From the NCBI GenBank assembly GCA_036365515.1, contig CM070873.1, positions 214,009,376 through 214,073,375 of the forward strand: a stretch of DNA of 64,000 nucleotides. The letters are read 5' to 3'. Source of the stretch: Torymus aiolomorphi. Taxonomy: Eukaryota; Arthropoda; Insecta; Hymenoptera; Torymidae. A program made the translations under genes and the position numbers. Shown here piece by piece: positions 1 through 17,654 of the stretch; positions within the stretch are counted from its first letter, which is position 1, and each line of letters opens with the position of its first letter. Below the pieces are notes generated by a model. It made no database searches. It was given only the letters and a program-made list of their open reading frames with translations, and was not told the origin of the DNA.

Positions 1-281
1 TTTAATTTTTATAAACTGCCTCGGCGTGGATGTTCATTGTCATATTTACTGTTGCGAATACTATAATTTTATTCTTCATAAAAAGACGAATCCATTGATA
101 TAATTTTCATCCCTCGTACTCTTCTAGTTTTCTGGCTTTTGCACTTGGCGTTCGGTATCGGCGTTTTTCCAGTTCGCGCGCGTGCCCAAAGGTTTACAAA
201 CATCACCGCTTGGATTGATTTTATTTTACAAGTCTTTTTATAATTATTTTAAGTAAATGGACGAAAAACTCGTCCATTACA
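1..281 (-). repeat. 3' LTR of the env retroelement (partial)
   Basis: Matches 17374-17654 with four mismatches and no gaps. In element orientation the LTR starts TGTAATGG at 281. Its first bases form a perfect 9 bp stem (256-264 with 270-278, 5-base loop AAAAC). About 1.1 kb of this LTR should lie before the window. Confidence 0.93.
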
Positions 282-300
282 CCTCACGGCCCACCGCAGA
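282..300 (-). other. Candidate polypurine tract next to the 3' LTR
   Basis: Read on the minus strand, the bases abutting the LTR are G-rich (GTGGGCCGTGAGG) with three pyrimidine breaks besides single T. Position is right for second-strand priming, but the tract is poor, so this is a positional call. Confidence 0.4.
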
Positions 301-707
301 ACGAGCGGGTTTTAAAATAAAATCCGTCGTTCGTAAATTCCATCATTATCTATTTATTTATTGTAAGCAAACAAAAAAAATATTTTTAAAAGAATTAAAA
401 ATGTTCTCAAGAGAGTAAATAATGATGCAATTTTTACAATAAGCGTGGATAAATACATAATTTTTAAACGTCTACTATGTTACTTGGTTCTAATGCGTGG
501 TTCCGTGTTATCAATTTAAAACAAACAATAGCCTAAAAACATATTAATTATTAAAAGAAAACATACTTCCATACTGTCCCATCCATTCTCACTCGTTTCA
601 TTAATTACATAGTTTTTTTGTTCTGTTCACCTTCTCTTCTCTTTCTTTTTTTTATTATTTCTTTTTTTTTTTTTTTTTTATTATAGTAATATTACAAAAT
701 TTTTCTC

Positions 708-860
708 CCATTCTATCATACACTAATAAAAAATACATACATTATTTTTCATTTTAACTTACTTTTAATTTTGTTCTCATTCTATCATACTCTCATACAT
801 TATTTTTTATTTTAACATACTTTAATTTAATTTTTTTTCTCATTCTATCATACTCTCATA
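708..860 (+). repeat. Degenerate short tandem repeat
   Basis: The phrase CATTCTATCATA recurs three times, about 65-70 bases apart, each followed by a T-rich stretch with ACATTATTTTT. It sits upstream of the antisense gene. Confidence 0.6.
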
Positions 861-1212
861 AAAATGCATACCTTATATTTGCTTTAATGTACTTAACTTA
901 GATTACATGCTGGCTTGATAACATAACAAGAAAAAATTTGTATTCTCAAAAAGTCTTAATGATTACAAGCAAAATTTTCGGCCTTATTTCTAAATTAATT
1001 TATTTCGGATATTCAGCTTTCCTATTTCTTATTTTTTCTTATATTAACACAATATTTTGATTTCTACAGTTTGAATTTCAATGCAAATAACACAATGTTA
1101 CATTCTTCATATAAAATTTTACATTTTCGCAAAAAGAAATTTTTATACAGGCGTGGATGACATGCGATTAGAAAAATTTTTCAGAATTTTTCGTTCCCCA
1201 CCCCACCCGCTT

Positions 1213-1241
1213 AAGAAAAAACTTGGAACAAGTTTTTTCTT
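1213..1241. other. Perfect 13 bp inverted repeat with 3-base loop
   Basis: AAGAAAAAACTTG (1213-1225) is followed after GAA by its exact reverse complement (1229-1241). It could fold in RNA of either strand. Role unknown: an RNA structure near the end of the sense transcript, or an upstream element of the antisense gene. Confidence 0.7.
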
Positions 1242-1419
1242 GTAATAAGTATTTAGCAAAAAGTAACAAATATATTATTTAGCAAAAAGAAGTAATAAAA
1301 TGTACGTATCTTTATCCATTCTCTTTTATCGACTATGATAAGGAAATTTGCGTATTTTTGGAGAAGATTATTGTTAATAATTTGTTTATGGTAACTGACT
1401 CTTTTCTCTGTCTTATTTT

Positions 1420-1665
1420 TCCTCCCTACTGTCCCCGTTTTCTTTGTATCTTTTCGTCGGCTCCTCCTACTCTTCCCTTTCTTCCTCTATGCGCGACCGA
1501 TTTTCTTCTAACTTTTCTCGCCTCTTTTTCCCTCTCTACTTCCCCCGATTTTTGGATATCTCTTCGTTGGCCCCTCCTACTCTGTCCTTCCATGCTTTCC
1601 CTATCCCCCTCTATGCGCGACCGATTTTCAAATACGTTAATTTCTCTCGCCTCTTTTTCCCTCCT
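1420..1665 (+). repeat. Pyrimidine-rich tandem duplication
   Basis: Two diverged copies of roughly 115-130 bases share TATGCGCGACCGATTTTC, CTCGCCTCTTTTTCCCTC and CTCCTCCTACTCT. Open frames read through here on both strands but are low-complexity and look incidental. Confidence 0.65.
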
Positions 1666-1830
1666 CCTTTCTTTCAAAAAATCCTGATTCGTCCCTATTT
1701 TTTTCTCTTTTCACTCCTATTTTTCTCCTTTGTATCTTCCCTTATACACTCGGTGCTGTATTCGAACCGTTTTACCCGAATACTCCTCACAGTCTTCCTC
1801 GCTGCCTCCTTAAGTAAACATCGTCCAAAA

Positions 1831-2850
1831 ATGCAAAACAGAATTGTTCATATTGCGTCTAATAACCCGCAACTACCTCATGTGATTCTTATGGACTCAT
1901 GGTGTGACCACATCTCCGCCGAGCTGTATGCGGGGAGGATTTCTGCGTATGGCGTTTTACGCCTACTTGGTTTACTCCGGTAAGTCTGTTTTTCTATTTA
2001 TTTGCTGTATAATTTGTTTACGTATCACTTCTAAAGATGTATTCTCTCTTTTTGCTTTTTATGGTTTCACCATTTTAATACGCTTTTAAAATAATAAAAA
2101 AAAAACTCTGCTGACCTTTTTATTATTCACGCAAATTTTTTTTTTTTTTTTTTTTACATATTTTCTTTCCTGATAAGATTGCTCTTATTGTCCTGTTTTC
2201 CTTTAATTTTTAATAATCTTCTTTTTTTTTTATATATAGATATCCCTCAGGTTTCGCATTTGCACCGTCATCTCCCAATTCGTAAGTAGCCCTAGTCTCA
2301 TCTTTAAATTTCGTTCTAATATTATTATTATATATATATTTTCGTTTTCTTTCATTCTTTAGTTCTGATGATTGGGAAGAAAGAGTCAATGATATTCTTC
2401 GGGTTGGATCCGGCTCCGATATCGAACCCTTATTGCCGAATTCTCCTTCGCAGGCTTCTAGTCCCACCCTTCATTCGGATTGGCTCAATTTGGACTTCAA
2501 TTCCCCGCGAGATCTCCTTCAAATGTCACCACCCCGGACTTCCCCGTGAGTCTCTATCTGTATACCTTTTTTTTTTATTTTTACAGGGATCTGTATATAT
2601 GTCTTTTTCCTATTGTTGTCCTTTTCCTTTTTCTAGGTTCCAGGAACCCTCTTTCCCAATCGCACCCCCAGAATCTCTACCGATAGAACATTCTTATAGG
2701 TAAATATATATAATAAAAAAAAAATTTTGTATTTATTCCGTATATACAATCTAATTTGTTTCTATTTTCTTTTGTTTCAGTCTCGATGCTCGTTTGCCGC
2801 CTAACTCCCCATCTGACGTTCTTCCAAATCAAACGTTACCCCCCTTGTAG
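1831..2850 (+). CDS. Five-exon gene antisense to the retroelement, unknown function
   Basis: Predicted exons are 1831-1979, 2240-2281, 2363-2545, 2637-2699 and 2781-2850, giving 507 nt (168 codons plus TAG). Every intron is GT-AG (donors GTAAGT, GTAAGT, GTGAGT, GTAAAT; acceptors behind T-rich tracts), 81-260 nt long, and all four interrupt in phase 2, so the inner exons are multiples of three and could be skipped without loss of frame. AATAAA follows 37 nt after the stop. The ATG at 1831 has A at -3; the frame is open further upstream, so an upstream exon is possible. The product has a hydrophobic N-terminal third with one Trp-Cys-Asp-His cluster, then an acidic and Ser/Pro-rich tail with motifs such as DWLNLDF that recall activation domains (inference). 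I recognise no family. Placement between the last sense gene and the 3' LTR resembles HBZ of HTLV-1 in layout only. Confidence 0.75.
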
Positions 2851-2886
2851 CATTGTTGTCTGTATATTTTTTTTGTTATTTGTTTG

Positions 2887-3166: not shown

Positions 3167-3197
<31 letters not shown>

Positions 3198-3347: not shown

Positions 3348-3974
3348 TTATTCATATTTTATTGTTAGCTTTTTCCCTATCTCCGTGTGGCAATACGTGC
3401 ATTCCACAAGAATTTCCGCACACATTTGACATGCTATTAAATGTCCGCAAGGTAAAAATATGGTATCCATTATCCCATGTAGGCAAATTTTAAATCTTTT
3501 TTCCTCTGGAACTTCAGTTGCCATTCTCATTATATATTCATCCGTATATTGCTGACAGACATCCTCATTTTCCTCTTTTTTTATGATGATCTCTTTTCCC
3601 ACAAATATAAATTCCGGATTCCATTTCTTATGTTCTTCCATGGCTGTATCTCCCATGAGCCATTTTCGTACCTTAATCTGGCAACTAAAACATTTTACCA
3701 CATCGTCTTCTCCCGTATAATAAAATCCTGCCGCAGCTAATTCGTTCGGCATTATATAATTGCATGGCCAATTTTTGAAACTGTTTAATCTATTTTCCTC
3801 CTTACAATAGTATTCATAGGTATCTATTTCCTCTGTTAATGATTTCATAATCTCCTCCATCGTGTCTGTAGCAATTTCCTTTGTCTCTTCTTTTTCTTCA
3901 AAAATCTGCATGGCTTTCAGCACTTCTTCTTCCGAAGGAACATCAATGGTAGCGTCTTCTAATGTTTTTATCAT
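3348..3974 (-). CDS. Inhibitor-of-apoptosis-like protein (BIR + RING)
   Basis: 208 aa. IAP proteins bind caspases through BIR domains and ubiquitinate targets through a C-terminal RING (known family). An acidic, Glu-rich N-terminus (1-60) is followed by one BIR (about 61-125: R62, W69-P70, AGF 82-84, C95, C98, H115) and a RING (about 160-198: C164, C176, H178, C182, C185, C192, C195). Oddly, the fourth BIR zinc ligand is Phe122 and the first RING ligand is Phe161; both codons are TTT, one base from TGT. Zinc binding is therefore doubtful in both domains. The ATG at 3974 overlaps the upstream ORF by 32 nt, and this frame stays open a further 27 codons upstream to a TGA, so the true start may differ. 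Last sense gene of the retroelement. Captured IAPs are known from baculoviruses; origin here is unknown. Confidence 0.88.
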   Translation of the reverse strand: MIKTLEDATIDVPSEEEVLKAMQIFEEKEETKEIATDTMEEIMKSLTEEIDTYEYYCKEENRLNSFKNWPCNYIMPNELAAAGFYYTGEDDVVKCFSCQIKVRKWLMGDTAMEEHKKWNPEFIFVGKEIIIKKEENEDVCQQYTDEYIMRMATEVPEEKRFKICLHGIMDTIFLPCGHLIACQMCAEILVECTYCHTEIGKKLTIKYE

Positions 3975-4485
3975 TTCTTCTGAGGTTAAATTTGTGGTAA
4001 TTATAGGAGTGTCCTTGTCTATCTTGGGTGTTTCTCTTCCCAGAAATATTTGTCAATTCATTTTTCTTTCTCCCCTCCTTGCTTCCTGATTTCAATATTA
4101 ATCCTTCCTTCATGTACGTGTCTTCCTTATGAGCTCTTGACAGACTCTCTTGTTTTTTATGAAACTTCTTATTCTTTTTTACTTCGGCTTCGGGTATGTA
4201 TTCGGAAATAGTCACTTCTCTTACTAGGTCTGAGTTTGCCCGGAGTTCTATTAATGCTTTCCTTAATCTTTTTCTTTTTTCCTCGGACACCTTTTCTTGT
4301 AATAAGGCCTTACACACCTTGCACCTCCAGCTGGCGTTTTCGCGGTTTGTCCTTTTCTTGTACGTAGTCTTCTTTATATATAGTCCCCGAGAATTTTCTA
4401 CTACACACTTAAAACACCCTTTTATCTTCGCGTCGTCTCCCCGTATGAAATGCGTTTCCGCATATAGCTCCAATTTGTCGCTCAT
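3943..4485 (-). CDS. Small basic CxxC protein, unknown function
   Basis: 180 aa, Lys/Arg-rich. Two CxxC pairs (C24/C27 and C55/C58) could form one zinc site. The tail from about 110 is highly charged and reads like a linker. Its ATG (4485-4483) shares bases with the TGA of the previous ORF as ATGA, an arrangement suited to termination-reinitiation. Its last 32 nt overlap the IAP ORF. The second pair lies in CKVCKALL, much like CDFCHRPL and CDICYAPL in the previous ORF, so the two ORFs seem to hold serial copies of one zinc module (inference). The charged tail may have been continuous with the IAP frame before a shift. No family recognised. Confidence 0.6.
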   Translation of the reverse strand: MSDKLELYAETHFIRGDDAKIKGCFKCVVENSRGLYIKKTTYKKRTNRENASWRCKVCKALLQEKVSEEKRKRLRKALIELRANSDLVREVTISEYIPEAEVKKNKKFHKKQESLSRAHKEDTYMKEGLILKSGSKEGRKKNELTNISGKRNTQDRQGHSYNYHKFNLRRNDKNIRRRYH

Positions 4486-4811
4486 GTTGGCGCGTTTTCC
4501 TTCGTGCGGGGAAGTTTAATTTCTGTGCAAACTCCACACTCTATTATCTTTTGTTTTTTTATTAAAGGCCTGTGACAGAAATCACAATGCAGTAAGTGTT
4601 CGAGATTTGGGCCCGAGAAATGCCAATTTTCATATATTCTAATTATATCGTCTTCTTTATAGCAAAGTGGTGCGTAGCATATATCGCACAGAATTCGTTC
4701 GAAGGTTATGTTTGAAAAAAAATTTCCTAATCTCCGGTTTCTGTTTATAACATTTGTCGTGCAATATTTCTTTATATTTTTCTGGGTAATTTTCCGGTAG
4801 TACTCCGTCAA
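4482..4811 (-). CDS. Small CxxC zinc-module ORF, unknown function
   Basis: 109 aa from a TTG at 4811, which is only a nominal start; the nearest ATG (4833-4831) is in another frame, so translation may depend on a splice or a lost base. CxxC pairs lie at 42/45, 76/79 and 92/95, with His80 after the second. The units CDICYAPL and CDFCHRPL look like repeats of one zinc-ribbon-like module. It ends in the ATGA overlap that opens the next ORF. No family recognised; an RNA or DNA-binding role is possible but not shown. Confidence 0.5.
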   Translation of the reverse strand: MTEYYRKITQKNIKKYCTTNVINRNRRLGNFFSNITFERILCDICYAPLCYKEDDIIRIYENWHFSGPNLEHLLHCDFCHRPLIKKQKIIECGVCTEIKLPRTKENAPT

Positions 4812-4959
4812 ATGGCGTGGGATCGTGTTCCATGTGTTTGCGCTCCTATCTATGCAGTATCAATGTCGGTATAATATTTTCTAAAAAAGAAGAATGTTTT
4901 TCTTTTTTCTTTTTTTTTTTTTTTTTACAAACAACGAATATATATATTTTTTAATTATA

Positions 4960-5021
<62 letters not shown>

Positions 5022-5061: not shown

Positions 5062-6453
5062 TTATGCCGACGCATTATCATCTGTTCTATCTAATTTAGG
5101 ATATAATCGAGGTTTGTGCTCTATTATTTCCTCGTAAATATGCTCATTATCCTCTTCTACCCGTTTATGCATCTCCTCTTTATTATCTTTTCCCGTGAGT
5201 CCTGTTCTCATTTCAATATTATCCTTCTCTTTATTTGTTTCCTGTTGTGATTGATGTCCTAAATGTAACAATAACTGTGTGACGGAATTCCACACCGCCC
5301 CCAATAAATGTATAGAAAACCCGTACAAACTGTAGATAGCATATCCGTGAATTATAGTATCAATTAATAATTTTATCAAACGACACACCATAATAAACCC
5401 GATTAAAGCTGCGCTGGCAGTCCCAAAGGTCAAAAAGTTGGACCACATTTTATTCCAGGCAGACTCGGCTATCGCGGAAATAGCGTCCGGATCCAATAAT
5501 TTACTAACCGTTATTCCATGCGGATTTATGTCTCGCCCGGACATCCCTAACGCCACCTTATATAAAACAGAGGGTTTTTCTATAGGAAACAATATCATGT
5601 CCCTTAATCTATTCTGATCATTTTGCGTATAAACTCCACTGACTGCTAGCGATTCCGGACTTACGTACTTCCAAGTTGGCTTTGTTTGTGGTTTCAGAGT
5701 TTCCGGATTTTTTACTTCTATCGCTTCTGGTAACATCTTAAACCAAATATTGTGTAACTTAAACATAGCCGGCAGATTTCTATCACAAGGTATCTGTTTA
5801 CCTGTACGTAATAAAATATGTGTTCGTGGTGCTAAAAAGTACTCCTCTTTATCTCGATATACGGGCAATTGTTCGTAACACTCTTTCGTGTCTCTACGCG
5901 TAACCTGTACTTTCAAACATTTCACCAAATGTATTACTTCCCCCGCAGTCACCGCTAGATAACCGGGCCCCTCCATTATCCGATACGCCACTTCTTCGGG
6001 TGATAGTGTCGCCAAGGCCAAAGCGTTTGATATTATTCGTCTTTCCAGTTCACATTTGTGTTTCAAGATATCATAATACATTAAATTTATTTGTTTCCTC
6101 ACATACTTCTCTGCATATAAAAATTTCGAATTCATATAAGTGAAAATATCTAAGTTTGCAGTAGCGGTCGGTCCTTTATCCATAAAACCATTTTCGCGCG
6201 AATTCTCGATTATAAATAATTTAGGATGCTCGGTTGTCTCGACTGTATACCCGCAAATTTTATGTTGTCCTTTTCTCCATAAAGCAAATGTAATTTCTTC
6301 CGTTTCTAAAGAGTACATTGTTCTGTCACCGTCAAGTTCGTATATTTTATCTAAATTTCCCTCATACAGTAAACTGTACTTCCTCGTACCGCAACTATCG
6401 TCTGGAATCACGGACCAAAATACATGGCTCGCGTCGTCATCAACGCATGTCAT
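5062..6453 (-). CDS. Chuvirus-type glycoprotein, C-terminal part
   Basis: 463 aa and the larger part of a second envelope protein, unrelated to the env at 7147-8922. Chuvirus (Jingchuvirales) glycoproteins are membrane fusion proteins, and copies are known in insect genomes, often inside LTR elements (known family). Features seen: conserved block around 134-240 (CELERR, GPGYLAV, APRTHIL), a second block around 258-290 (WKYVSPESLA), a hydrophobic membrane segment about 342-368 and a second hydrophobic stretch 370-396, then a charged cytoplasmic-like tail holding YEEII. The frame is open upstream of the ATG at 6453 into the region of the N-terminal ORF, so the two ORFs are one gene broken by a single-base frameshift near 6540. 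As it stands no single frame gives the whole protein. Confidence 0.85.
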   Translation of the reverse strand: MTCVDDDASHVFWSVIPDDSCGTRKYSLLYEGNLDKIYELDGDRTMYSLETEEITFALWRKGQHKICGYTVETTEHPKLFIIENSRENGFMDKGPTATANLDIFTYMNSKFLYAEKYVRKQINLMYYDILKHKCELERRIISNALALATLSPEEVAYRIMEGPGYLAVTAGEVIHLVKCLKVQVTRRDTKECYEQLPVYRDKEEYFLAPRTHILLRTGKQIPCDRNLPAMFKLHNIWFKMLPEAIEVKNPETLKPQTKPTWKYVSPESLAVSGVYTQNDQNRLRDMILFPIEKPSVLYKVALGMSGRDINPHGITVSKLLDPDAISAIAESAWNKMWSNFLTFGTASAALIGFIMVCRLIKLLIDTIIHGYAIYSLYGFSIHLLGAVWNSVTQLLLHLGHQSQQETNKEKDNIEMRTGLTGKDNKEEMHKRVEEDNEHIYEEIIEHKPRLYPKLDRTDDNASA

Positions 6454-6536
6454 GTCTGAGAAGACACAGGTAACGCCTGAGCTTAGTTTAATATGATTTG
6501 AATTTAGTCGAACCGGCTGATAACTATCTTGTATCT

Positions 6537-7103
6537 TTATTTCAATGTAACCCGCGACGTAAACATCTTTATAGGTTCCATAGGAGTCCGAAAATATTCC
6601 CCTTTACAATCCCCGTCATAGTCACTACTTCCCGCAAAAACTACGCTCTTTTGAATTGTACTGTTGGATTTTATTCCCATAATTTGCATATTGGCTATGA
6701 CTATAGATCCCGTTTGATGTAAGCCCCAACATTGATCGCGATTAACTTCATCGTAATAACTGATCTCGCCTCCAAACACGCGAGAAGCATGTGAGTGCAT
6801 GCCACAATGTGTAATTATTCGCGTTATCTTTATAGAACATTTGAAAGTATGTACCATCCCGAAATCATTTAGCTGTAACAGTTGCCCGTACATCGTAGTA
6901 ACATTTACAGATGGTTGTTTTAAGTCGCATTCTTCGACGCCTAGTAGAGATATCGTTGTTAAGTTAGATAGTTGCTCCCCGCAATCGTAACCATAAAATC
7001 CCCAGGTTGTTTTGATTAAACCTGCTATTATAACATACGACAGTAGTGGATAGATACAGCCCGCCATCTGTAATAAATAAAACATTCTCCATGCTTTATT
7101 CAT
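6537..7103 (-). CDS. Chuvirus-type glycoprotein, N-terminal part
   Basis: 188 aa from an ATG at 7103, 43 nt after the Baculo_F env stop. A hydrophobic stretch at 8-30 can serve as signal peptide and is followed by GFYGYDCG and a Cys-rich ectodomain start (ECDL, CGMHSH, GDC) typical of the N-terminus of chuvirus-like glycoproteins (known family). It stops at 6537 while homology carries on in another frame into the ORF that ends at 5062, which marks a frameshift and not a natural end. Whether the shift is a mutation, a sequencing error or programmed cannot be told; I see no canonical slippery heptamer at the break. Confidence 0.82.
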   Translation of the reverse strand: MNKAWRMFYLLQMAGCIYPLLSYVIIAGLIKTTWGFYGYDCGEQLSNLTTISLLGVEECDLKQPSVNVTTMYGQLLQLNDFGMVHTFKCSIKITRIITHCGMHSHASRVFGGEISYYDEVNRDQCWGLHQTGSIVIANMQIMGIKSNSTIQKSVVFAGSSDYDGDCKGEYFRTPMEPIKMFTSRVTLK

Positions 7104-8922: not shown

Positions 8923-9062
8923 GATGCTGTAAGAAAAAGAACATGTGCTAACTATCGTTTTTCTACAAATTTTTTCCTAAGTATCTTGTATACTTATAAA
9001 TATTAATGCATACTTATTTCCTAACTATTTATCTATTTATTTATACTCTTTTTATTTTATTA

Positions 9063-9188
9063 CTATTCCTGATCTATATATGATATTCTTAAACGATTTA
9101 CGTGAACTATTTTTGTTTTATTATTATTCATTTTTATTTTTACGTTACCTTTATCGTTAACTATTTCAATAATCGTATACGGCCCTTA
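9063..9188 (-). pseudogene. Cut-off integrase tail with GPY/F module
   Basis: After the TAA that ends pol (9188-9186) the same frame stays open for 40 codons to a TAG at 9065-9063 and begins with GPYTI, the GPY/F signature of gypsy integrase C-termini (known family). The TAA therefore removes this module unless it is read through. Confidence 0.75.
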
Positions 9189-12100
9189 ATATTGATTAGC
9201 TAGTTTATATGGTTTGCCTCCTTTTAAGAGCCAAACACTGTCACATATTTTAAACTCTTTAGAATTTGTTTTCTTGTCATAATAATATTTAGATTTATTT
9301 TTAGCTTCAATTAGTTTTTCTCGCGCAATATTCTGGATGTTATGTAATTGATTATTTAATTTAGTAATATAATCGTTATATGTTAATGGCTGCTCTTCGG
9401 CTTCCAGTGGCTCGCTTGAAGGTAATCGTGCTAGTCTCCCAAATATTAACTCATAAGGCGTAAATTTATGCCCTTCATGTTCTACTGTGTTATAACATAA
9501 AGTCGCTAATTCGAGACATTCATCCCAAGTATCATTGCTTTCGATAAACATTTTCATATATTCGGTCAGCGAGTGATGCGATCTTTCGAGCGATCCATTT
9601 GACTGCGGATGATATGCTGTAGTTTTGATTTGTTTAATACGGAATTTCTTTGCGACTCTTCTCATCAAACTACTCATAAAATTCGATCCTTGGTCTGTTA
9701 AAATTGTTACTGGAGAACCAAAAATGCAGATGAACCTTTTTATGAACGCGTCAGCTACCGACTCGGCGCTTGCGTCTTTCAAGGGAATTGCTAAACAAAA
9801 TTTCGAGAAATTACATTGAATGGTTAAAATATTATTATGGCCGTTTTTCGATACTGGGAAAGGACCCACTATATCAAGACTAACTTTTTCGAGTGGTGCC
9901 ATAGGCGTATCTGTGATAATCATAGGTTGCTTTGTTTTTACTCTCACAAGTTTCTTTAATTGACACTTTAAACACTTTCGAATATAATTTTGAACATCAT
10001 CTTTTATGTTTTCCCAAAAATATTTTTGTTTGATTCTCCTATAAGTTTTGTTTACTCCTCTGTGTCCGCCAATGGCTGTATCATGCATTTCCTCGATTAT
10101 TTTCCCACGATCTTTCTCTTGAACGTATTTTATTAATCCATTACATATAATAATTTTCAAAGATAGCCCTTTTAAAATATTTCTTATTTTGGAAATAATT
10201 TCTTTCCATGGTACATTTTCAATGTTTTCACTCTTAGCAATGCTAATAGAGCGTAAATCTTCCTTAATAATTATTGATTTTAAAACCTTCAAAGTCGTAG
10301 TTATATTGTTCATGACTTCTGTAGTACTTGCAGGTATCTCTTCTTTAATAATAAGTGCAAAATGTAGTTTATGATTTTTATTTGTGATTTTAATTTCTCC
10401 GGGATTTAAATGCGAAAAATGTGGTAGTTCTTTTCTTTCTGATAATTGCAATGAGCCTTTATCACACGGTATACCATCGGTCGCTATGAAATATATGTAA
10501 TTATCTTTTCTCATAAAAAGTTGTTCCTTGCATTCGACAAACAGCTTACCGCAATTAAACTTTTCTCCTTGTTTAGTAAAAGCCTCCTCTCCGAAATTTT
10601 CTTTGTTAAAATTATGCGGGCCTGTAGCTATTGGATTATTTATTTCAATTTCTTCCCCAAAATTGTTATCTAATGAGTTATTTTTGTGTTGTTCATCTAT
10701 CTCCGCTATATTTTCTATGTCTTCCATTTCTTTATTACTATTAACGATCTCATATGACTCATTTTCGTCTTCATGTAGAATTTCGAGAGAATTCTTTGAT
10801 ACTTTATTTTTAGTATTATTTGGCTTTTTCGGTCGTTTATCTCGGTAATTCGGAATATCTACTTTCCCTGTTCTGCTTCGTGTCTGTACTACTAGAATAT
10901 TATTATCTACTGGATTTCGAGACAATGCGTCCGCATTACAATTTGTTTTACCTGCTTTATAAACAATATCGAAATCATATGTATTTAGTTTTATGCGCCA
11001 TCGACTTACTCGCGAGGTGGGATCCGTAGAATTTTTGAACCATATAAGAGGTTTGTGATCCGTAACGATAGTAAATTTACGCCCAAGTAAATAAGGTCGA
11101 AATTGATTAACAGAATAAACAATTGCTAAAGCTTCACGTGAATACGTATCATATTTTCTTTCGGTGTCGGAGAGTACTCGGGATACATAAGCAATAGGTC
11201 TATCTTTATTTATTTCCCCTTGTGAAAGTATTCCTCCTATCGCTACCCCGCTGGCATCACAAGTTAATATAAAAGGTAATGAGAAATCTGCTATTTTAAG
11301 AACAGGCTGAGTACATAGTTTATCTTTTAAAAGGTCAAATGCTTTCTGTGTTTCCTCACTCCATATAAAAGGCGTGTCGTTTTTCAACAAATTACTCAAT
11401 GGCTTTGCTATTCCCGAAAAATTATGAATAAAACGACGATAATAACCTGCTAATCCCAAAAATTGTCTTATATTTTTAATATTTTGCGGTTGTGGAAACT
11501 CACGAACTGCCTCTAATTTGCGCGGGTCGGGTTTTACTCCTTCTTCGCTCAAAACATGGCCTAAATAGACTACTTCTGTTTTTAAAAATTCACATTTATC
11601 GGGCTGTAATTTAAGGTTGGCTTTACGTAATCTCCGTAAGAATCTTTCAAACTTTTCGTTATGTTCAGCAATTGTTTCACCATAAATAACCGCGTCGTCC
11701 AAAAATAAAAATATTTCTCGTTGTTGCATGCCATCGAAAACTAAATCAACGCAACGTTGAAAAGTAGCTGGACTGTTCGATAAACCCATAGGCATCGTTT
11801 TAAATTGAAATAAGCCAAATGAAGAAGCAAAAGCTGTTTTATGCCGATCCGCTCGGTCTAAGGGAATTTGGAAAAATCCCTGCGCTAAGTCAAAAACAGA
11901 AAAATATTTTGCACCTCCTACTTGATCTATGATATCCAATATATTTGGTAAAGGATACCTATCTTTTACAGTCCGATCATTTAACTGACGAAAATCGACG
12001 ACTAATCTATACCTCTTATTACCCGCGCTATCTGGCGTTTTTGCAACTAAAAATACTGGTGAAGAATAATTGGAACAAGATGGCTCTATAATGTCATTTT

Positions 12101-14054
12101 CCAGCATTTCTTTCAACTGTTTATCCAATTCTGCCTTTAACGCATGCGGGAACCTATACGGTCGTACATTTACTGGTATATCATTTATTGTTGGTATTTT
12201 GTGCGTAATGACTGAAGTTGTTCCGAGTTTTTCTCCTTTCAAATAAAAACAATCGGCGTATTTCTCAATTAATTCTTCAATAGGTTTTCTTTGTTCTGCC
12301 TCTAAATGTTTATATCTGAGAACTGACTTTAATTTTTCCGTTCGACTTAACTCGTGGATATCAGTCTTTGCAATTTGCAATATTTTATTATTTCCCATTT
12401 CTAAGTTATTTTCAGGGCGAAATGTTGAAAAATCATTTTTTTCTTTGAATTTATTATAATAAATGTCACCATATTTTTTTCGTATATTTTGAGTTTCGTT
12501 TCTCTCATCGAAACTGTACGTCTGCATTTTTTGTTCGTCTTGAATTTGTCTAAGATAAGGTTTTTCATAAATTTCTAGATAATTGTGACTTAACTCTTTA
12601 TAACCCATATTTTCATCCGATTCACTAAATAATTTTTCCTCATTTAACTCTTCATGCAAAATTTCATTTTCATCTTTGTTTTTTTTCTCTTCATTACACA
12701 TTTTATTTTCACGCGAAACATCTTTATTACTTTCAATAATATCATTAATATTATTTTCACATAGATTATTTCCATTAATCAGGAAACCTTCATTTTGTTC
12801 AATCTGAACTTTATTTTCTCCTAAATTTTTTTCATTTTCTTCACTTCCGAAACTCTCAACTATTTCTCTCTGAACTTCACATAAACGCGTATCTTCATTA
12901 TTCCCGAAACCCTCATTTGTTTCATTACACTGAACATTATTTTCACATAAACTTTTATTTTTCTTAATTTCAAAACTTTCAATCTCCTCATCAACGTTTA
13001 TTATTTCATCTTCTTCATTATTTAACACTTCCATTACCCTTTTATCATTTTTACTCGAAACATCATGTACGTCGAAAAATTCATTATCAAAACTTATCAA
13101 ATCTTTTTCTTCGAACACATTTTCGCATGGCTTATTTGATAATTCGTTATTTTTCTTACCGCCGACATAAAATTTACCACAATTATATTCAACATATTTT
13201 TCGTCAATATCATCTTCAATTAAATCATCAACACAATTTTCTTCACAAAAAGATACGACATTACCTCCCATTTCACCAAATACTCTCATGTCGCGGTCCC
13301 TTTTATAACGATCACCATTTTTACCCCACTTATTAATTCTCAAAGAAAAATCTTTTTCCATTTCTTTTGAACTTCCGTACACATCATTTATTTCACAAAA
13401 TGCTTTAAATTGTTTTTCCGGTGTTTCTTTATTTCTCCTAACGCTCTTTTCCGGAAAATAATTACTAGTAAAGTCACAATCATCATTATTTATTTCAATC
13501 AACTCCTCTTCTGTCTGTACAAATCCACAATCAACATAAGGTTTCTTAAAATCTTTTTCACTTTGTTTTTCATGTATTTCATCTGTTTCATTCGTTCTAT
13601 AAGATATACTCTCAAATGGAATTATTTGACCATTAAATTCCAAGTAATTCTCTCGATAATTTATTTGCGCGAAATTTTCTCTAAAAAATTCAGTGCCTAG
13701 TATATCCGCTTCAATAATTGGAAAATCGTCCGCTACCAAATGAAAATCAACTTTGTAGTTATTAAAATCAACTCTGACTCGACCCAAAGTTTTTATGGCC
13801 TGAGCCGTTATTCCTTTCAAAATAATTATTTGATTAGTGTCAATATTAACATAAGAAGATACTTCCGTCTTTTTTACAAGATTGACAGAAGCTCCTGTGT
13901 CTAACATAAAAATAAGCGGCCTGTTAAATTCTCCGATGTCAATTTTTATAGTTGGCGCTGAACTTTTTTGACTAAGTCTTACTGTCTCAAAGCTGACGGC
14001 TGAACATTGCTGTTGCTCGGTGTCATAGGGCGCGGTCTGTTTTCTATCTCTCAC
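9186..14054 (-). CDS. pol: Pol polyprotein (PR-RT-RH-IN)
   Basis: 1622 aa in the -1 frame relative to gag. Aspartic protease with DTGAS (52-56); reverse transcriptase about 630-800 with VVDFRQLN, FDLAQGF and the catalytic FLDD at 784-787 (Phe in place of the usual Tyr); RNase H from TCDASG (931) to DALSR (1042-1046); integrase with an HHCC zinc finger (GGHRGVNKTY, CLKCQ) and the D,D,E core (DIVGPF, LTDQGSNF, NGSLERSHH). Two long inserts are unusual: about 420 residues of Asn/Glu/Lys-rich low complexity between protease and RT, and about 280 charged residues between RNase H and integrase. It ends at a TAA just before the GPY/F module. The GTG at 14054 is not a start; the protein should be made by frameshifting from gag. 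Confidence 0.93.
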   Translation of the reverse strand: MRDRKQTAPYDTEQQQCSAVSFETVRLSQKSSAPTIKIDIGEFNRPLIFMLDTGASVNLVKKTEVSSYVNIDTNQIIILKGITAQAIKTLGRVRVDFNNYKVDFHLVADDFPIIEADILGTEFFRENFAQINYRENYLEFNGQIIPFESISYRTNETDEIHEKQSEKDFKKPYVDCGFVQTEEELIEINNDDCDFTSNYFPEKSVRRNKETPEKQFKAFCEINDVYGSSKEMEKDFSLRINKWGKNGDRYKRDRDMRVFGEMGGNVVSFCEENCVDDLIEDDIDEKYVEYNCGKFYVGGKKNNELSNKPCENVFEEKDLISFDNEFFDVHDVSSKNDKRVMEVLNNEEDEIINVDEEIESFEIKKNKSLCENNVQCNETNEGFGNNEDTRLCEVQREIVESFGSEENEKNLGENKVQIEQNEGFLINGNNLCENNINDIIESNKDVSRENKMCNEEKKNKDENEILHEELNEEKLFSESDENMGYKELSHNYLEIYEKPYLRQIQDEQKMQTYSFDERNETQNIRKKYGDIYYNKFKEKNDFSTFRPENNLEMGNNKILQIAKTDIHELSRTEKLKSVLRYKHLEAEQRKPIEELIEKYADCFYLKGEKLGTTSVITHKIPTINDIPVNVRPYRFPHALKAELDKQLKEMLENDIIEPSCSNYSSPVFLVAKTPDSAGNKRYRLVVDFRQLNDRTVKDRYPLPNILDIIDQVGGAKYFSVFDLAQGFFQIPLDRADRHKTAFASSFGLFQFKTMPMGLSNSPATFQRCVDLVFDGMQQREIFLFLDDAVIYGETIAEHNEKFERFLRRLRKANLKLQPDKCEFLKTEVVYLGHVLSEEGVKPDPRKLEAVREFPQPQNIKNIRQFLGLAGYYRRFIHNFSGIAKPLSNLLKNDTPFIWSEETQKAFDLLKDKLCTQPVLKIADFSLPFILTCDASGVAIGGILSQGEINKDRPIAYVSRVLSDTERKYDTYSREALAIVYSVNQFRPYLLGRKFTIVTDHKPLIWFKNSTDPTSRVSRWRIKLNTYDFDIVYKAGKTNCNADALSRNPVDNNILVVQTRSRTGKVDIPNYRDKRPKKPNNTKNKVSKNSLEILHEDENESYEIVNSNKEMEDIENIAEIDEQHKNNSLDNNFGEEIEINNPIATGPHNFNKENFGEEAFTKQGEKFNCGKLFVECKEQLFMRKDNYIYFIATDGIPCDKGSLQLSERKELPHFSHLNPGEIKITNKNHKLHFALIIKEEIPASTTEVMNNITTTLKVLKSIIIKEDLRSISIAKSENIENVPWKEIISKIRNILKGLSLKIIICNGLIKYVQEKDRGKIIEEMHDTAIGGHRGVNKTYRRIKQKYFWENIKDDVQNYIRKCLKCQLKKLVRVKTKQPMIITDTPMAPLEKVSLDIVGPFPVSKNGHNNILTIQCNFSKFCLAIPLKDASAESVADAFIKRFICIFGSPVTILTDQGSNFMSSLMRRVAKKFRIKQIKTTAYHPQSNGSLERSHHSLTEYMKMFIESNDTWDECLELATLCYNTVEHEGHKFTPYELIFGRLARLPSSEPLEAEEQPLTYNDYITKLNNQLHNIQNIAREKLIEAKNKSKYYYDKKTNSKEFKICDSVWLLKGGKPYKLANQY

Positions 14055-15511
14055 CTGGCGCCCGTATGGGAGAGATCCCCAGAGTTTCCCTCATTTTCAG
14101 ACGCACTTTGTCTTACATCATTTTGAAAGTTAAAACAGTCGCGTTTAAAGTGACCATTTTTCCCGCAATAAAAGCATATGGGAATTCGCGGATTAACAGG
14201 AGCCTGAACTTCTTGTCTATTTCGAGCAAAATTATTATTACCATTATTATTTCCGTTGTAATTATTTCGATTGGCATGATAGTTATTAAAATCCCGACCA
14301 TTGTTTCGATTATTTTCATTTGGTAAAAAGTTCATTCTTCCTCGATTGTCAGAATTCCAACCGGTAAAATTCCCTCTAAAATTATTTCTGTTTGCTGAAT
14401 AACTAGCCGACGGACCACTTTCTCTATTAAAATTATTCTGATTTGATCTATTTTGTCCATAATATTTTGCTAATGTTAAGCAATTTATCGCTCCATGCCC
14501 TTCTCGTTTGCAATATGCACATGTGATTTGTTCGATATCTTGATTAACAATATTAACCCTTTTATTTTCTCTATTAATTTTTGCCTTATTATCATCTTTA
14601 GTATCGTCGTCTATTATACTACATGCATATTCCCTTTCTACCTCCAAAGCTAATTCGCGTGCTTCTTTTAAACTAACTGGTTTCCCCATGCGTGCGCGTA
14701 TTTCCCATCGAAGCCCTTTTAAAAAGAATTTTATGCAATCGCTTTCTAATTTGGTTTTATATTCTTTTACTTCTGTGAACCGATTTTCGCATTTGGCGGC
14801 TTTAAAAATTTCCGACTCTATTTCTTTCAAGCGATTTAAATATACGATTACTGATTCGTTACTTTTTTGTTTTATGCGAGCAAGATCGCCTTCCCAATTG
14901 TGAAAAGTTTTTGCAGACCCGTATATTGTCTCTAAAAATTCAGAAATTTCCGAAATTTCTTTAAAATGTTGTCCCCGAACACTATTTAACGCGTCTCCAT
15001 AAAGTCGCATGCGAATCAATTTCGCTAATTCTGCCTCATATTCTTTTGGAAGGATGCTAAGTGCTTCTTGACATCCATCTAAAAATTGTGTTAAAGAAAT
15101 ATTTTGTCCGTTAAATCGCGGAATTAAATCAAGAGCGTCTTTAAGAGATAGCCCTCTTATTTGTATCGTTGTAGTATTCATGGTTTTATTTTCTCGTTTA
15201 CTGGTTTTATGTAAGAAAGAAAAACGTTCGTTTTTTATATTAGCTTTTTTTGAAAAATGCTCGTTTTTTATCTTTAATTCGTTTTCCGAAAATTCCTTGT
15301 CGTTTTCTGTAATAAGAGAAGAATTCGAGGATTTATAATCCTCATTCAATGTTTCACTTGCGTTTTCTTTTATTTTTCCCTCTTCCTGTTTTGTAGCAAA
15401 AATATTTAGTTTTCCGCGAAACGCTTTAATGATTTCAAAAATATCAAAACCTTGTTTTACACTTTCGTTCAATTCTTTTATAGTATCTTCCCGTTTGAAA
15501 TATGAATCCAA
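14051..15511 (-). CDS. gag: Gag polyprotein, main part with two zinc knuckles
   Basis: 486 aa from a nominal TTG; the frame is open further upstream to about 15620, so the true N-terminus lies in the ORF at 15550-16077. A capsid-like region (about 110-300, with a Trp-containing helix near 206 and KFFLKGLRWEIR) is followed by a nucleocapsid with two CCHC knuckles (331-344 and 446-459, both Cx2Cx4Hx4C) separated by an Asn/Arg-rich linker. Packages the RNA and forms particles (known family). The stop is at 14053-14051, inside the overlap with pol. Confidence 0.9.
   Translation of the reverse strand: MDSYFKREDTIKELNESVKQGFDIFEIIKAFRGKLNIFATKQEEGKIKENASETLNEDYKSSNSSLITENDKEFSENELKIKNEHFSKKANIKNERFSFLHKTSKRENKTMNTTTIQIRGLSLKDALDLIPRFNGQNISLTQFLDGCQEALSILPKEYEAELAKLIRMRLYGDALNSVRGQHFKEISEISEFLETIYGSAKTFHNWEGDLARIKQKSNESVIVYLNRLKEIESEIFKAAKCENRFTEVKEYKTKLESDCIKFFLKGLRWEIRARMGKPVSLKEARELALEVEREYACSIIDDDTKDDNKAKINRENKRVNIVNQDIEQITCAYCKREGHGAINCLTLAKYYGQNRSNQNNFNRESGPSASYSANRNNFRGNFTGWNSDNRGRMNFLPNENNRNNGRDFNNYHANRNNYNGNNNGNNNFARNRQEVQAPVNPRIPICFYCGKNGHFKRDCFNFQNDVRQSASENEGNSGDLSHTGAR
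14084..14090 (-). promoter_or_regulatory. -1 ribosomal frameshift site G GGA AAC
   Basis: In the gag reading frame the bases read G GGA AAC, an exact X XXY YYZ heptamer of the type used in the gag-pro overlap of Mason-Pfizer-type retroviruses (known). Twelve codons of gag follow it, and the -1 frame is open straight into pol. Downstream bases can fold (CTGG with CCAG around 14083-14056 and an inner GGGA/TCCC pairing). Confidence 0.75.
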
Positions 15512-15549
15512 AAATTCCTTCCTTGTTTCTAAACACAGTTGTGATTTTA

Positions 15550-16077
15550 TTACCTCGATAACGCTTTCTTCTGGTAAAAGGCAGCTACCGTTTTCACGCG
15601 ATTAGTTTTTCCATGCGCGGTAAGTGGCGTACTAAAATTAAATTCACCAGCTTCTTTCTGACTATCGCCCAATGTAATTTTATTTAGTTTTAATTTAGGT
15701 GATTTTAATATAAATTTTTTCTGTTGGTCCCCTTTTTTTATAACAGCTTCGACTTCTCTAAGGCTACTATCATTCAAAGTATCATCAGACTCTTCGAGAA
15801 TTGAGAGATCAGTTTTATTCTCAATTTTTCTGTAGTTACCCTGATAATCAATATTTAACCCCGCGAAAGTTTTTTCAACTTCTTTCTTTAACACGGAAAC
15901 TTCCTTCTTTAAATTTTTATTATTGTTCTTTAAATTATTACTACTCAGATTTTCTACTAAATTATTATCATGTAATTCTTCCTCTTTATTTCTAAGTTTT
16001 GATAGTAAAGAATTTGCAAATATCAAATTTATTTTATCACTTCCTTTTGCATTTATATTATCGTGCTTGTTCGGCAT
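15550..16077 (-). CDS. Gag N-terminal part (matrix-like)
   Basis: 175 aa from a true ATG at 16077, about 150 nt downstream of the primer site, so this is the natural first ORF of the element. Lys/Asn-rich with a coiled-coil-like stretch (about 30-70). It ends at 15550, while the main gag frame is already open from about 15620, so the two overlap by about 70 nt in different frames. The simplest reading is one gag gene with a one-base shift near 15560-15620. No known domain recognised. Confidence 0.65.
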   Translation of the reverse strand: MPNKHDNINAKGSDKINLIFANSLLSKLRNKEEELHDNNLVENLSSNNLKNNNKNLKKEVSVLKKEVEKTFAGLNIDYQGNYRKIENKTDLSILEESDDTLNDSSLREVEAVIKKGDQQKKFILKSPKLKLNKITLGDSQKEAGEFNFSTPLTAHGKTNRVKTVAAFYQKKALSR

Positions 16078-16223
16078 ATTTTCTTAGTCATTTTATTTTA
16101 TATTTAAAAAAAATTGCTTAAAAATCTTAAAAATTCTGAAAAATCCTGCTTTTTGCTTTCTTTTAAATATATTTTTTTTTTATTTAAAAAAATATTTCTG
16201 TTTATTCCCTGGAAAAATTTTAT

Positions 16224-16241
16224 TTCCCGGCCGATGCACCA
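16224..16241 (-). other. Primer binding site for tRNA-Gly
   Basis: The plus strand reads TTCCCGGCCGATGCACCA, identical to the 3' 18 bases of an insect-type tRNA-Gly(GCC) with CCA. On the minus strand it is the TGG-initiated primer site just inside the 5' LTR. This fixes the element's direction. Confidence 0.88.
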
Positions 16242-16267
16242 GTTTTTAACTTATAAGATTAGTAATC

Positions 16268-17654
16268 TGTTATGTCGAGATTACACACCTTATAATCAAA
16301 TTATTTGAATAGGCACTGAGCAAGCCCATGCGTATTCGGATTCCTGTCTTTTCGCCAACGCCCGAAAGCGCTATGCGTAACCAGGATGCGGAATCCCGGA
16401 ATAAACAGAAATTTTATAAAAATGTATAGAACAATGATTTTATTCAATCCGCGACGAAATACATTTTGAGTACAATTTTAATTAATAATACCTTGGGCTT
16501 CGCACCCCGCTTTGCTGGTTGAGATCGGTGGTTCAGCTCCTCTTCCAGTGCGTGATGATCGACCCTCTTCAGTTCTCTACTCTTGCAGCAGGTGCGATGA
16601 TTGTTGCCTCGTAGACCGGCGACGATGAATGTGGTGAAGGCTCAGTTGGTGGGCGCAGCGAGAGAGCTTCTTTTTCTATGTCTATGTGGCTGAACTCCTT
16701 CTACGTTCCGTCGGAGGTCTCGAGCAGAGATTCGCCCTCTTCAAATTGCTGTGGTGGACTGCGCGCCGTGCTCTCATTATTCGGCCTTTTTATACCCGAA
16801 TTTTCACGTACACAGAAGCTTCTCGACTATTATCTATAAAAAGCTCCTATGCTATGCATAGATCCATATACAGCATAGTAGTGGTTGGTCTATAGGGTTA
16901 AGAACAAAGCCATAAGGATGTCTCCTGAATTTCTTTGGAGACCCCGCGCCGTTCCCGAGAAAAGCTTCCCGCAAAGGTCAAATGGCCTAGATCGAGCCTC
17001 TTCCAATGTATCTATTTACACACACATTTGGTAGGTATCCGATCGCTCCCACCAGCCGAAAAGTGCGGCTGTCACCTTCCCCTTAGCTGGACTCATAATT
17101 TTGGCTCTTTACGATCTGTCAGCTTTTTCGCCTCCGTACGGGAAAATCGGAGCCGCGTTGGTCTTGACAAACGCCAGACCTCTCTCACGCATGCGCCGCG
17201 TTTTCTCGTTCTCTATCTCTCTCTTTTCTTGCTCTCATGTTGTGCCTTCCCTCTCGCTGTCTCTCTCTCTCTCTCGGCTCTAGCAAACAGATTGGGTATG
17301 GCGTTTTACTCGCTCCTCCCTTCCTCCGGTCTCCTCTTCGCTGTGCTCTTGAATTCGGCGTTCTCAGTGCGCGTTTAATTTTTATAAACTGCCTCGGCGT
17401 GGATGTTCATTGTCATATTTACTTTTGCGAATACTATAATCTTATTCTTCATAAAAAGACGAATCCATTGATATAATTTTCATCCCTCGTACTCTTCTAG
17501 TTTTCTGGCTTTTGCACTTGGCATTCGGTATCGGCGTTTTTCCAGTTCGCGCGCGTGCCCAAAGGTTTACAAACATCACCGCTTGGATTGATTTTATTTT
17601 AAAAGTCTTTTTATAATTATTTTAAGTAAATGGACGAAAAACTCGTCCATTACA
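16268..17654 (-). repeat. 5' LTR of the env retroelement
   Basis: The outer end (17654) is set by identity with 1-281. The inner end is less sure: the first TG/CA-type boundary beyond the primer site is 16268, giving 1387 bp with TGTAAT...AACA ends; a boundary directly at 16242 is the alternative. It repeats the tip hairpin (17629-17651). Open frames inside it on the plus strand look incidental. Confidence 0.8.

What the first reader, a model, noticed from the sequence alone, without database searches (positions are those of the whole stretch)
1..17654. An LTR retroelement carrying two unrelated envelope genes, zinc ORFs, an IAP and an antisense spliced gene
The sequence shows gag-pol of the 17.6/297 type, a Baculo_F-type Env (7147-8922) and directly behind it a chuvirus-type glycoprotein (5062-7103, split). 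Errantivirus Env and chuvirus glycoproteins are each known in insect retroelements, but I know of no element with both in tandem, nor with a BIR-RING IAP as an accessory gene. With the CxxC ORFs and the antisense gene it has a complex-retrovirus layout: structural genes first, then a cluster of accessory genes before the 3' LTR. Inference: two entry proteins could widen tissue or host range, and the IAP could keep infected cells alive.
Basis: partly seen in the sequence, partly recalled or inferred. Interest (0 to 1): 0.96.

Follow-up and report, generated by a model that had tools for sequence, protein, structure and literature searches.

The report
Two-envelope complex retroelement with IAP gene
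This 18.8-kilobase retrovirus-like element of a likely insect genome carries two unrelated envelope genes, a gene with apoptosis-inhibitor domains and, on the opposite strand, a gene predicted to be spliced; its sense-strand gene order recurs in several other copies and in a second, diverged family, so it would be a complex invertebrate retrovirus that likely uses two entry proteins.

Summary
Confirmed and extended. The element lies on the minus strand between 1387-bp LTRs (99.1% identical; 4-bp target duplication; 18,760 bp in all), the left LTR running 1106 bases past the window edge. It holds gag, pol, an F-type Env (Baculo_F), a chuvirus-type glycoprotein (GP), a small Cys ORF (cys1) and a BIR-RING protein; a five-exon antisense gene is predicted. 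Nested insertion and assembly error are rejected: 8 of the 20 other env copies read carry the whole set in the same order, and a second family (amino-acid identity: pol 82-90%, GP 56-72%, Env ~39%, IAP ~48%) keeps env-GP-cys1-cys2/IAP. Corrections: the second 'zinc ORF' is the N-terminal part of the IAP gene; this copy is broken in gag, GP and cys2/IAP while other copies are open; cys1 is interrupted in all nine family copies compared and open in the second family. The other 12 of 20 copies lost the accessory genes by deletion, so these are dispensable in cis. A possible reversed order (GP, then F-Env) occurs at three further loci. Roles of both envelopes, the IAP and the antisense gene are inferred. 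No two-envelope retroelement turned up in nine literature searches.

The parts
16268..17654 (-). 5' LTR (TGTAATGG...CATAACA); 17655-17658 is one copy of the CCAC duplication
   Evidence: 1387 bp, 99.1% identical to the 3' LTR
1..281 (-). 3' LTR, window part only; the LTR goes on for 1106 bases left of the window (L001)
16224..16241 (-). candidate primer binding site, 26 bases inside the LTR; resembles the 3' end of tRNA-Gly (recalled)
   Evidence: one exact match in the window, none in 100 shuffles
15550..16083 (-). gag, N-terminal piece (frame broken in this copy)
   Evidence: one frame with the next piece in both other copies that covered it (2 of 3 stretches fetched; the third was off target)
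14051..15601 (-). gag, C-terminal piece with CCHC zinc knuckle
9186..14090 (-). pol: weak protease match, RT, RNase H, integrase; overlaps gag
8927..8928 (-). candidate splice acceptor (AG, judged by eye) four bases before the env ATG; same arrangement in the second family
7147..8922 (-). F-type envelope (Baculo_F), 591 aa, open
6537..7103 (-). chuvirus-type glycoprotein GP, N-terminal piece
5062..6603 (-). chuvirus-type glycoprotein GP, C-terminal piece; one frame with the former in other copies
4881..4882 (-). candidate splice acceptor (AG, judged by eye) before cys1
4482..4859 (-). cys1, small Cys-rich ORF (ATG at 4833; ATG-led frame interrupted here and in the 8 other full-order copies; open in the second family); its stop overlaps the cys2 start (ATGA)
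3943..4485 (-). cys2 = N-terminal part of the IAP gene
3348..3974 (-). BIR and RING domains of the IAP gene (in this copy each domain lacks a zinc-ligand Cys that 7 of 7 other copies showing these sites keep)
1831..1979 (+). antisense gene, coding exon 1
2240..2281 (+). antisense gene, exon 2
2363..2545 (+). antisense gene, exon 3 (acidic, Ser/Pro-rich)
2637..2699 (+). antisense gene, exon 4
2781..2850 (+). antisense gene, exon 5 to the TAG stop; AATAAA at 2887-2892
1213..1241 (-). stem-loop (13-bp stem) in the 3' untranslated region, present in both families

Best explanation
This is an 18.8-kb LTR retroelement of Ty3/gypsy-like gag-pol layout that carries, besides gag and pol, an F-type envelope gene, a chuvirus-type envelope gene likely of class III, a small Cys-rich ORF, a Cys-BIR-RING (IAP-like) gene and a predicted spliced gene on the opposite strand, and it likely works as a complex endogenous retrovirus. 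Shown: the gene content, the LTR pair and target duplication, its multiplication in this genome, and a second diverged family with the same order of sense genes. Inferred: full-length RNA from the 5' LTR makes Gag and Gag-Pol; spliced RNAs (candidate acceptors lie right before env and before cys1) make Env and the accessory proteins, the IAP gene being reached by stop-start coupling behind cys1; both fusogens are put on the particle or used in different tissues, so that the element can pass between cells; the IAP keeps the producing cell alive; the antisense product regulates expression, as HBZ does in HTLV-1. The copy in the window is itself defective; copies of its family with open frames exist for gag, env, GP and cys2/IAP, but not, among nine compared, for cys1.
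For: LTRs 99.1% identical, 4-bp duplication. env DNA: 33 of 42 rows in the own genome are 938 nt or longer at 97-100% identity, 17 of them full length, window included. Of the 20 best other copies read from env to the 3' LTR, 8 have env-GP-cys1-cys2-IAP-antisense in order (two of these stretches end before the LTR, and one of the two before antisense exon 1, which one search finds just beyond it). GP DNA: 9 of 46 rows full length, at the window and the same 8 loci. Second family, two loci read: Env 39%, GP 56-72% by piece, cys1 34%, cys2 38%, IAP 48-49% aa, same order; pol 82-90%; six loci have env, GP and IAP rows of this family in this order on one strand (in three of them IAP lies 10-14 kb from the first GP row). 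Between families dN/dS 0.17 (GP N part), 0.27 (cys1), 0.20 (IAP); for env, GP C part and cys2 synonymous sites are saturated (pS 0.78-0.98) and pN is 0.36, 0.16, 0.39; Cys kept 8/9, 7/7, 9/9, 6/7, 4/4, 10/11 for env, GPn, GPc, cys1, cys2, IAP. GP fold: the first nine Foldseek hits (four at E<=0.001) are herpesvirus glycoprotein chains, eight of them named gB. Antisense gene: splice sites kept wherever seen in 8 of 8 copies, no stop in the window's frame columns, 1 indel base in 3899 exon cells against 177 in 4044 intron cells; exon 1 in seven further loci outside the full family at 74-94% aa.
Against: No RNA, protein or particle data exist here. 12 of 20 copies lack GP (whole or part) and all of cys1, cys2, IAP and the antisense exons, and two deletion types occur in four copies each, so accessory genes are not needed in cis. 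The ATG-led cys1 frame is interrupted in all nine full-order copies compared. Env is free of stops over its full length in 7 of 13 full-length rows, but among the nine full-order copies in only 3 (a fourth from residue 23 on). One of 8 copies has a 1-base insertion in an antisense exon, which would shift its frame. Substitutions among the nine full-order copies show no significant constraint except in the GP N part (p 0.0017; GPc 0.32, cys2 0.17, IAP 0.70, antisense 0.18, cys1 0.67). The antisense protein has no Pfam match and no match in the second family. The GP model is weak (pLDDT 68, pTM 0.30, TM-scores of the nine hits 0.14-0.37). Protein searches with Env and IAP in the large database found nothing. 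The 5' end of a second-family copy was not found in the 5 kb looked at.
Confidence: 0.7

Rival explanations
1. The two envelopes do not work together: one (most likely GP, held in common with many single-envelope gypsy elements here) is the real entry protein, and the other is a remnant or serves another end, such as blocking superinfection.
For: GP directly follows pol, with no F-Env between them, in both single-GP elements read (L024, L027). Env is the faster-evolving of the two between families (39-40% against 62-71% aa). Among the nine full-order copies env is free of stops in only 3.
Against: Env is open in 7 of 13 full-length family-1 rows and in the second family (593 aa), keeps 8 of 9 Cys, and pN 0.36 lies well below pS 0.81. 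GP is open in 5 of 8 other full-order copies, but only a part of it is left in four amplified derivatives (L002, L003, L005, L006) that keep full-length env.
Confidence: 0.27
2. The IAP gene acts chiefly as a RING ubiquitin ligase against a host defence factor and not as a caspase inhibitor; the Cys-rich N-terminal half is the substrate-binding part.
For: One BIR only, fused to a conserved Cys-rich half with no Pfam match of its own; RING kept in the second family.
Against: The PDB chains matched are BIRs of NAIP, cIAP, XIAP and 'Apoptosis 1 inhibitor', but a match by sequence does not show that function.
Confidence: 0.35
3. Chance pile-up: a simple gypsy element into which other elements and a host gene inserted one after another.
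For: Some copies do carry extra insertions (for example 2.4 kb in L007, 1.3 kb in L012 and L015, 3.5 kb in L013).
Against: 8 of 20 copies and a second family at 34-90% protein identity share the order; no foreign sequence at the gene borders named.
Confidence: 0.02
4. The antisense gene is not a gene but a chance open path through T-rich DNA of the 3' untranslated region.
For: No Pfam match, none in the second family, N/S among copies not significantly low, one copy with a frame-shifting exon insertion. No shuffle test of the five-exon model was run.
Against: Four GT..AG introns keep one 168-codon frame; splice sites kept and 1 exon indel base in 8 copies; exon 1 with its donor kept in a related subfamily, 8 synonymous against 8 non-synonymous codon changes in 42 codons.
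Confidence: 0.25

Closest known systems
Errantiviruses / envelope-carrying gypsy elements (Metaviridae)
   Same: LTRs, gag-pol with PR-RT-RH-IN order, F-type Env (Baculo_F) behind integrase, candidate splice acceptor at env
   Different: A second envelope gene of another family, a Cys ORF, an IAP-like gene, an antisense gene; 16-kb internal region; the Metaviridae profile read whole names at most gag, pol and env (PMC7879559)
Anakin (BEL/Pao element with chuvirus glycoprotein, mosquitoes)
   Same: Captured chuvirus-type glycoprotein inside the LTRs (PMC7642597, passages)
   Different: Here pol shows no Pao-type protease in Pfam and an F-type envelope precedes GP
Gypsy elements with GP behind pol in this same genome (L024, L027) and the gypsy/Jingchuvirales associations of Hymenoptera
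   Same: GP directly behind a gypsy-like pol, 702 aa and open in L024, interrupted by a stop in L027
   Different: No F-type Env between pol and GP; no IAP found, but only about 1.1 kb behind GP was read. PMC10084718 (passages) reported gypsy pieces near such glycoproteins but no clear capture by gypsy; PMC13172572 (passages) says gypsy elements have type III fusion glycoproteins
HTLV-1 HBZ and other retroviral antisense genes
   Same: Spliced gene on the opposite strand near the 3' LTR (PMC10186651, passages)
   Different: No bZIP or other Pfam domain; host is likely an insect; transcription not shown
Baculovirus and insect IAPs
   Same: BIR and RING
   Different: Single BIR fused to a Cys-rich half; host IAP-like loci in this genome match only at 33-44% over single domains

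Membership tests
Metaviridae (Ty3/gypsy) | Two LTRs around an internal region of 3 to >15 kb | tested here: met
   LTRs 1387 bp, internal 15,986 bp
Metaviridae (Ty3/gypsy) | 18-nt tRNA primer site behind the 5' LTR | tested here: inconclusive
   Sequence like a tRNA-Gly complement (tRNA recalled, not from a call), but 26 bases inside the LTR
Metaviridae (Ty3/gypsy) | Polypurine tract of about ten A/G before the 3' LTR | tested here: inconclusive
   The bases before the 3' LTR are G-rich but not a clean A/G run; a ~120-bp block across this point is kept at 89-92% in the second family
Metaviridae (Ty3/gypsy) | Pol order protease-RT-RNase H-integrase, Env downstream of integrase | tested here: met
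   (protease match below Pfam's cut-off)
Genus Errantivirus | env gene present | tested here: met
   Baculo_F 2.1e-32
Genus Errantivirus | Pol falls in the monophyletic errantivirus clade | not tested
   No reference pol set at hand; no tree built
Anakin (BEL/Pao with chuvirus glycoprotein) | Chuvirus-type glycoprotein inside the LTRs | tested here: met
   PF24664
Anakin (BEL/Pao with chuvirus glycoprotein) | BEL/Pao pol | tested here: not met
   Pfam gives RT, RNase H (PF17917/PF17919) and integrase domains and no Pao-type protease; which models mark gypsy or Pao is recalled, and no tree was built
Inhibitor of apoptosis (IAP) | BIR domain, with C-terminal RING | tested here: met
   this copy lacks one zinc ligand in each
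Inhibitor of apoptosis (IAP) | Blocks caspases or cell death | not testable with these tools
   needs cells
HBZ-like retroviral antisense gene | Spliced antisense ORF near the 3' LTR | tested here: inconclusive
   Sequence model only, no RNA
HBZ-like retroviral antisense gene | bZIP domain | tested here: not met
   no Pfam match at E<=10
Complex retrovirus (works like) | Accessory genes beside gag, pol, env, expressed from spliced RNAs | tested here: inconclusive
   Genes and candidate acceptors present; RNAs not testable

The most novel reading that the evidence does not exclude
A lineage of invertebrate gypsy-type retroviruses has evolved full retroviral complexity on its own: two fusogens of different structural classes on one virus, a captured and remodelled IAP that keeps infected cells alive, a stop-start-coupled Cys protein, and an HBZ-like antisense regulator; and pairing of an F-type with a class III envelope arose more than once, as the reversed GP-then-Env order at three further loci suggests.
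Probability: 0.42. Interest if true: 0.95.

Novelty: new variant of a known kind. Interest (0 to 1): 0.86.

Why it matters
Envelope-carrying gypsy elements are the known invertebrate counterpart of retroviruses and are described as gag-pol-env elements (PMC7879559). An element lineage that keeps two envelope genes of unrelated families plus an IAP-like gene through long divergence would show that complex-retrovirus layouts arose outside vertebrates, would offer a natural case of a virus keeping two fusogens, and makes testable how such elements pass between soma and germ line or between species. Copies are young and abundant, so RNA and protein tests in the living host are practical.

Tried and rejected
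Nested insertion and assembly error: rejected by the shared order in other copies and in the second family. Deletions in the 12 shorter copies being removed introns: not taken up, because the joins overlap by 5-16 bases of shared sequence (microhomology). Recent capture of the IAP from the host: host-like loci match at 33-44% over single domains only, against 45-50% for second-family rows over most of the query. Viral contig collection with the GP piece: no match. Protein database with IAP and with Env: no match. Rfam and tRNA scans of the window: nothing. PDB by sequence with the GP piece: nothing. One piece of pol was translated out of frame ('polC') and its rows were ignored. In one search the last exon was cut one base short; the exon end in the report is 2850, as. 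A 5' LTR for the second family was sought in one 5-kb stretch and not found. L028, a lone second-family-like IAP fragment, has no GP or env in the 8.8 kb read. Within-family N/S tests were mostly not significant.

Literature: nine searches. No two-envelope gypsy element and no IAP-bearing retroelement was seen in the listings or passages read; most subscription papers are not held and the study cited there as Chary and Hayashi 2025 did not turn up, so absence from print is not established. Read: PMC12440569 (outline and parts 1-3 of 5), PMC7879559 (whole), passages of PMC7642597, PMC10084718, PMC13172572 and PMC10186651; all others only as search listings.
Full report
What was checked. The finding claims a minus-strand LTR retroelement at 1-17654 with gag-pol, an F-type Env, a chuvirus-type glycoprotein, Cys ORFs, an IAP and an antisense spliced gene. 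The window lies at C1:214,009,376-214,073,375 of a 1.08-Gb genome held in 21 contigs, five of which (157-267 Mb) make up nearly all of it.

Borders. The two LTRs are 16268-17654 and -1105..281 (L001 and window; 0 is the base left of the window), 1387 columns with 12 mismatches and no gap. They begin TGTAATGG and end CATAACA, and are flanked by CCAC on both sides, within a tandem satellite-like repeat. Element length 18,760 bp. With an assumed insect rate near 3e-9 per site and year (recalled) 0.87% LTR divergence means an insertion one to two million years old.

Genes. GP falls on two overlapping ORFs whose Pfam stretches adjoin. In 8 of 8 other full-order copies the GP N part aligns with one or two indel columns against the window; GP is one frame of 676-680 aa in 5 of 8 of them. 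The cys2 ORF and the IAP ORF are one ATG-led 379-aa frame in 4 of 8, and one 475-aa frame in the second family. gag is one frame in both other copies that covered the point (2 of 3 stretches fetched, the third being off target). cys1 starts with an ATG; its ATG-led frame is interrupted in the window and in all 8 other full-order copies, and open (145 codons stop to stop) in the second family, where 6 of 7 Cys are kept. So cys1 may be dying in the window's family, or may need a frameshift; this was not settled. The cys1 stop overlaps the cys2 start in both families. In this copy the BIR and the RING each lack a zinc-ligand Cys that 7 of 7 other copies showing these sites have; one of these seven has lost another RING Cys. 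So the window copy is broken in gag, GP, cys1 and cys2/IAP; copies with open frames exist in the family for gag, env, GP and cys2/IAP.

Copies. With env DNA the own genome gives 42 rows, 33 of them 938 nt or longer at 97-100% identity, 17 full length, window included. I fetched the stretch from env to the 3' LTR for the 20 best other rows; the remaining 12 long rows were not read. 8 of 20 carry env, GP, cys1, cys2, IAP and the antisense gene in the window's order; two of these stretches end before the LTR because of extra insertions, one of them also before antisense exon 1, which one search finds at the expected place. The other 12 of 20 are deletion derivatives with joins at 6764/1654 (four copies), 7367/1610 (four), about 6598/1608 (two, nearly the same), 5966/1577 and 7086/1763, each with 5-16 bases of shared sequence at the join. 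All 12 keep the region from the LTR to about 1577, in which the stem-loop lies. Thus accessory genes are dispensable in cis, and the derivatives have probably spread with help from full copies (inference).

Second family. GP DNA finds, besides 9 full-length rows of the window's family, rows at 65-75%. Two loci read (L022, L023) show env, GP, cys1, cys2-IAP in the same order: Env 39%, GP 56-72% by piece, cys1 34%, cys2 38%, IAP 48-49% aa; in L023 GP and cys2/IAP are interrupted. The pol behind L022 is 82-90% identical to the window's. A 120-bp block at the start of the 3' LTR is 89-92% alike. Own-genome protein searches give rows of this family at 35-46% for Env and 45-51% for IAP. Nineteen element-type IAP loci (11 of the window's family, 8 others) were counted; 17 of 19 have a GP row within 14 kb (15 within 5 kb), 2 do not, one of which is an isolated fragment (L028). 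Six second-family loci have Env, GP and IAP rows in this order on one strand; in three of them GP and IAP are 10-14 kb apart.

Selection. Between families dN/dS is 0.17 (GP N part), 0.27 (cys1) and 0.20 (IAP); for Env, GP C part and cys2 synonymous sites are saturated, while pN is 0.36, 0.16 and 0.39. Among the nine full-order copies only the GP N part shows a significant lack of amino-acid changes (p 0.0017); the other five tests are not significant. So the constraint is visible over the long term, not within the recent burst.

Antisense gene. Exons 1831-1979, 2240-2281, 2363-2545, 2637-2699, 2781-2850 on the + strand; four GT..AG introns; 168 codons; AATAAA at 2887. In 8 of 8 full-order copies the splice sites that could be seen are kept and no stop arises in the window's frame columns; exons have 1 indel base in 3899 cells (an insertion in one copy that would shift its frame), introns 177 in 4044, though introns are richer in runs. 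The own-genome protein search gives 49 rows, among them exon 1 in the 11 loci of the window's family and in seven further loci at 74-94% aa; one of the seven was read and is a derivative of a related subfamily with 81% LTR DNA identity (L026). There the exon-1 donor is kept, with 8 synonymous and 8 non-synonymous codon changes in 42 codons. No Pfam match, no match in L022 or L023. The model is good but unproven, and no shuffle test of it was run; the acidic Ser/Pro-rich C-terminal part makes a transcription regulator a fair guess (inference).

Two fusogens. PF24664 is named viral fusion glycoprotein of Monjiviricetes; a model of the C-terminal piece (pLDDT 68, pTM 0.30) gives herpesvirus glycoprotein chains, eight of nine named gB, as its first nine Foldseek hits, with low TM-scores. 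gB is a class III and baculovirus F a class I fusogen (recalled). The genome holds very many GP loci: 1732 candidates of a first look, of which 84 were scored, with 84 match rows, 68 of them at 42-47% and mostly without stops. Two elements of that kind were read (L024, L027): GP directly behind pol, no F-Env between. Three distant Env rows (24-25%) lie 2-3 kb behind a GP row on the same strand, and in the one read (L032) the downstream ORF is Baculo_F at 1.7e-15 and GP is interrupted; whether one LTR pair encloses both was not tested.

Expression model (inferred). A pyrimidine tract and CAG stand four bases before the env ATG in both families, and a similar acceptor stands before cys1 (by eye). 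Spliced RNAs for Env and cys1/IAP, with stop-start coupling between cys1 and cys2-IAP, follow as the simplest reading. GP has an acceptor right before its ATG in L022, none that is clear in the window copy.

Comparison. Against the Metaviridae profile (PMC7879559, read whole) the element fits in LTRs, domain order and Env position; the second envelope, the IAP and the antisense gene are outside it. Anakin (PMC7642597, passages) shares the chuvirus glycoprotein but is BEL/Pao. PMC10084718 (passages) found gypsy pieces beside such glycoproteins in Hymenoptera but no clear gypsy capture; PMC13172572 (passages) says gypsy elements have type III fusion glycoproteins. No two-envelope element appeared in nine searches (listed under Tried and rejected).

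Verdict. A real, multi-copy, two-envelope retroelement lineage with an IAP-like gene, kept in two diverged families; the defective window copy is one of a young family. Function of the second envelope, the IAP and the antisense gene remains to be tested.

Noticed in passing
window 1213-1241 (-); L022 3230-3304: A 12-13-bp stem-loop followed by a G-rich run in the 3' untranslated region, shared by both families (80-85% DNA, about -17 kcal/mol) and lying in the region that all 12 deletion derivatives keep; perhaps an RNA export or packaging element.
   Followed up: partly
G000 C5:54685126-54690174, C3:169987695-169993433, C1:194005229-194010264: Three loci with the reversed order GP then F-type Env, 2-3 kb apart on one strand: possible second two-envelope lineage (only L032 was read).
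   Followed up: partly
L002, L003, L005, L006 and L018-L021: Two deletion types of the element, four copies each among the 20 read; in five rows Env residues 1-522 (or 1-521) sit in a 595-aa open frame, so with a new C-terminus.
   Followed up: partly
L026 and C3:16077291, C3:159168254, C4:141658203, C5:100536491: A related subfamily (81% LTR identity) that in L026 is reduced to the end of pol, the first 54 codons of env, antisense exon 1 and the LTR; the other four loci have the same pair of env-start and exon-1 rows but were not read.
   Followed up: partly
whole own genome: 1732 candidate loci for chuvirus-type glycoproteins in a first look (84 scored), many with open frames of 600-700 codons: an unusually large load.
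   Followed up: no
window 44382-49966: Tc5-type DNA transposon: inverted repeats 44382-45632 / 48703-49966 (97.5%) around ORFs with HTH_Tnp_Tc5 and Transp_Tc5_C.
   Followed up: partly
window 51331-57047: GC-rich (up to 59%) LTR-like element: 251-bp direct repeats 98.8% alike around a 1043-codon pol and a 322-codon ORF with DUF7041.
   Followed up: partly
window 58337-61550: Inverted repeat of about 1500 bp, 96.9% alike, with a 210-base centre.
   Followed up: no
window 282-360: No clean polypurine tract before the 3' LTR although the block is strongly conserved between families.
   Followed up: no
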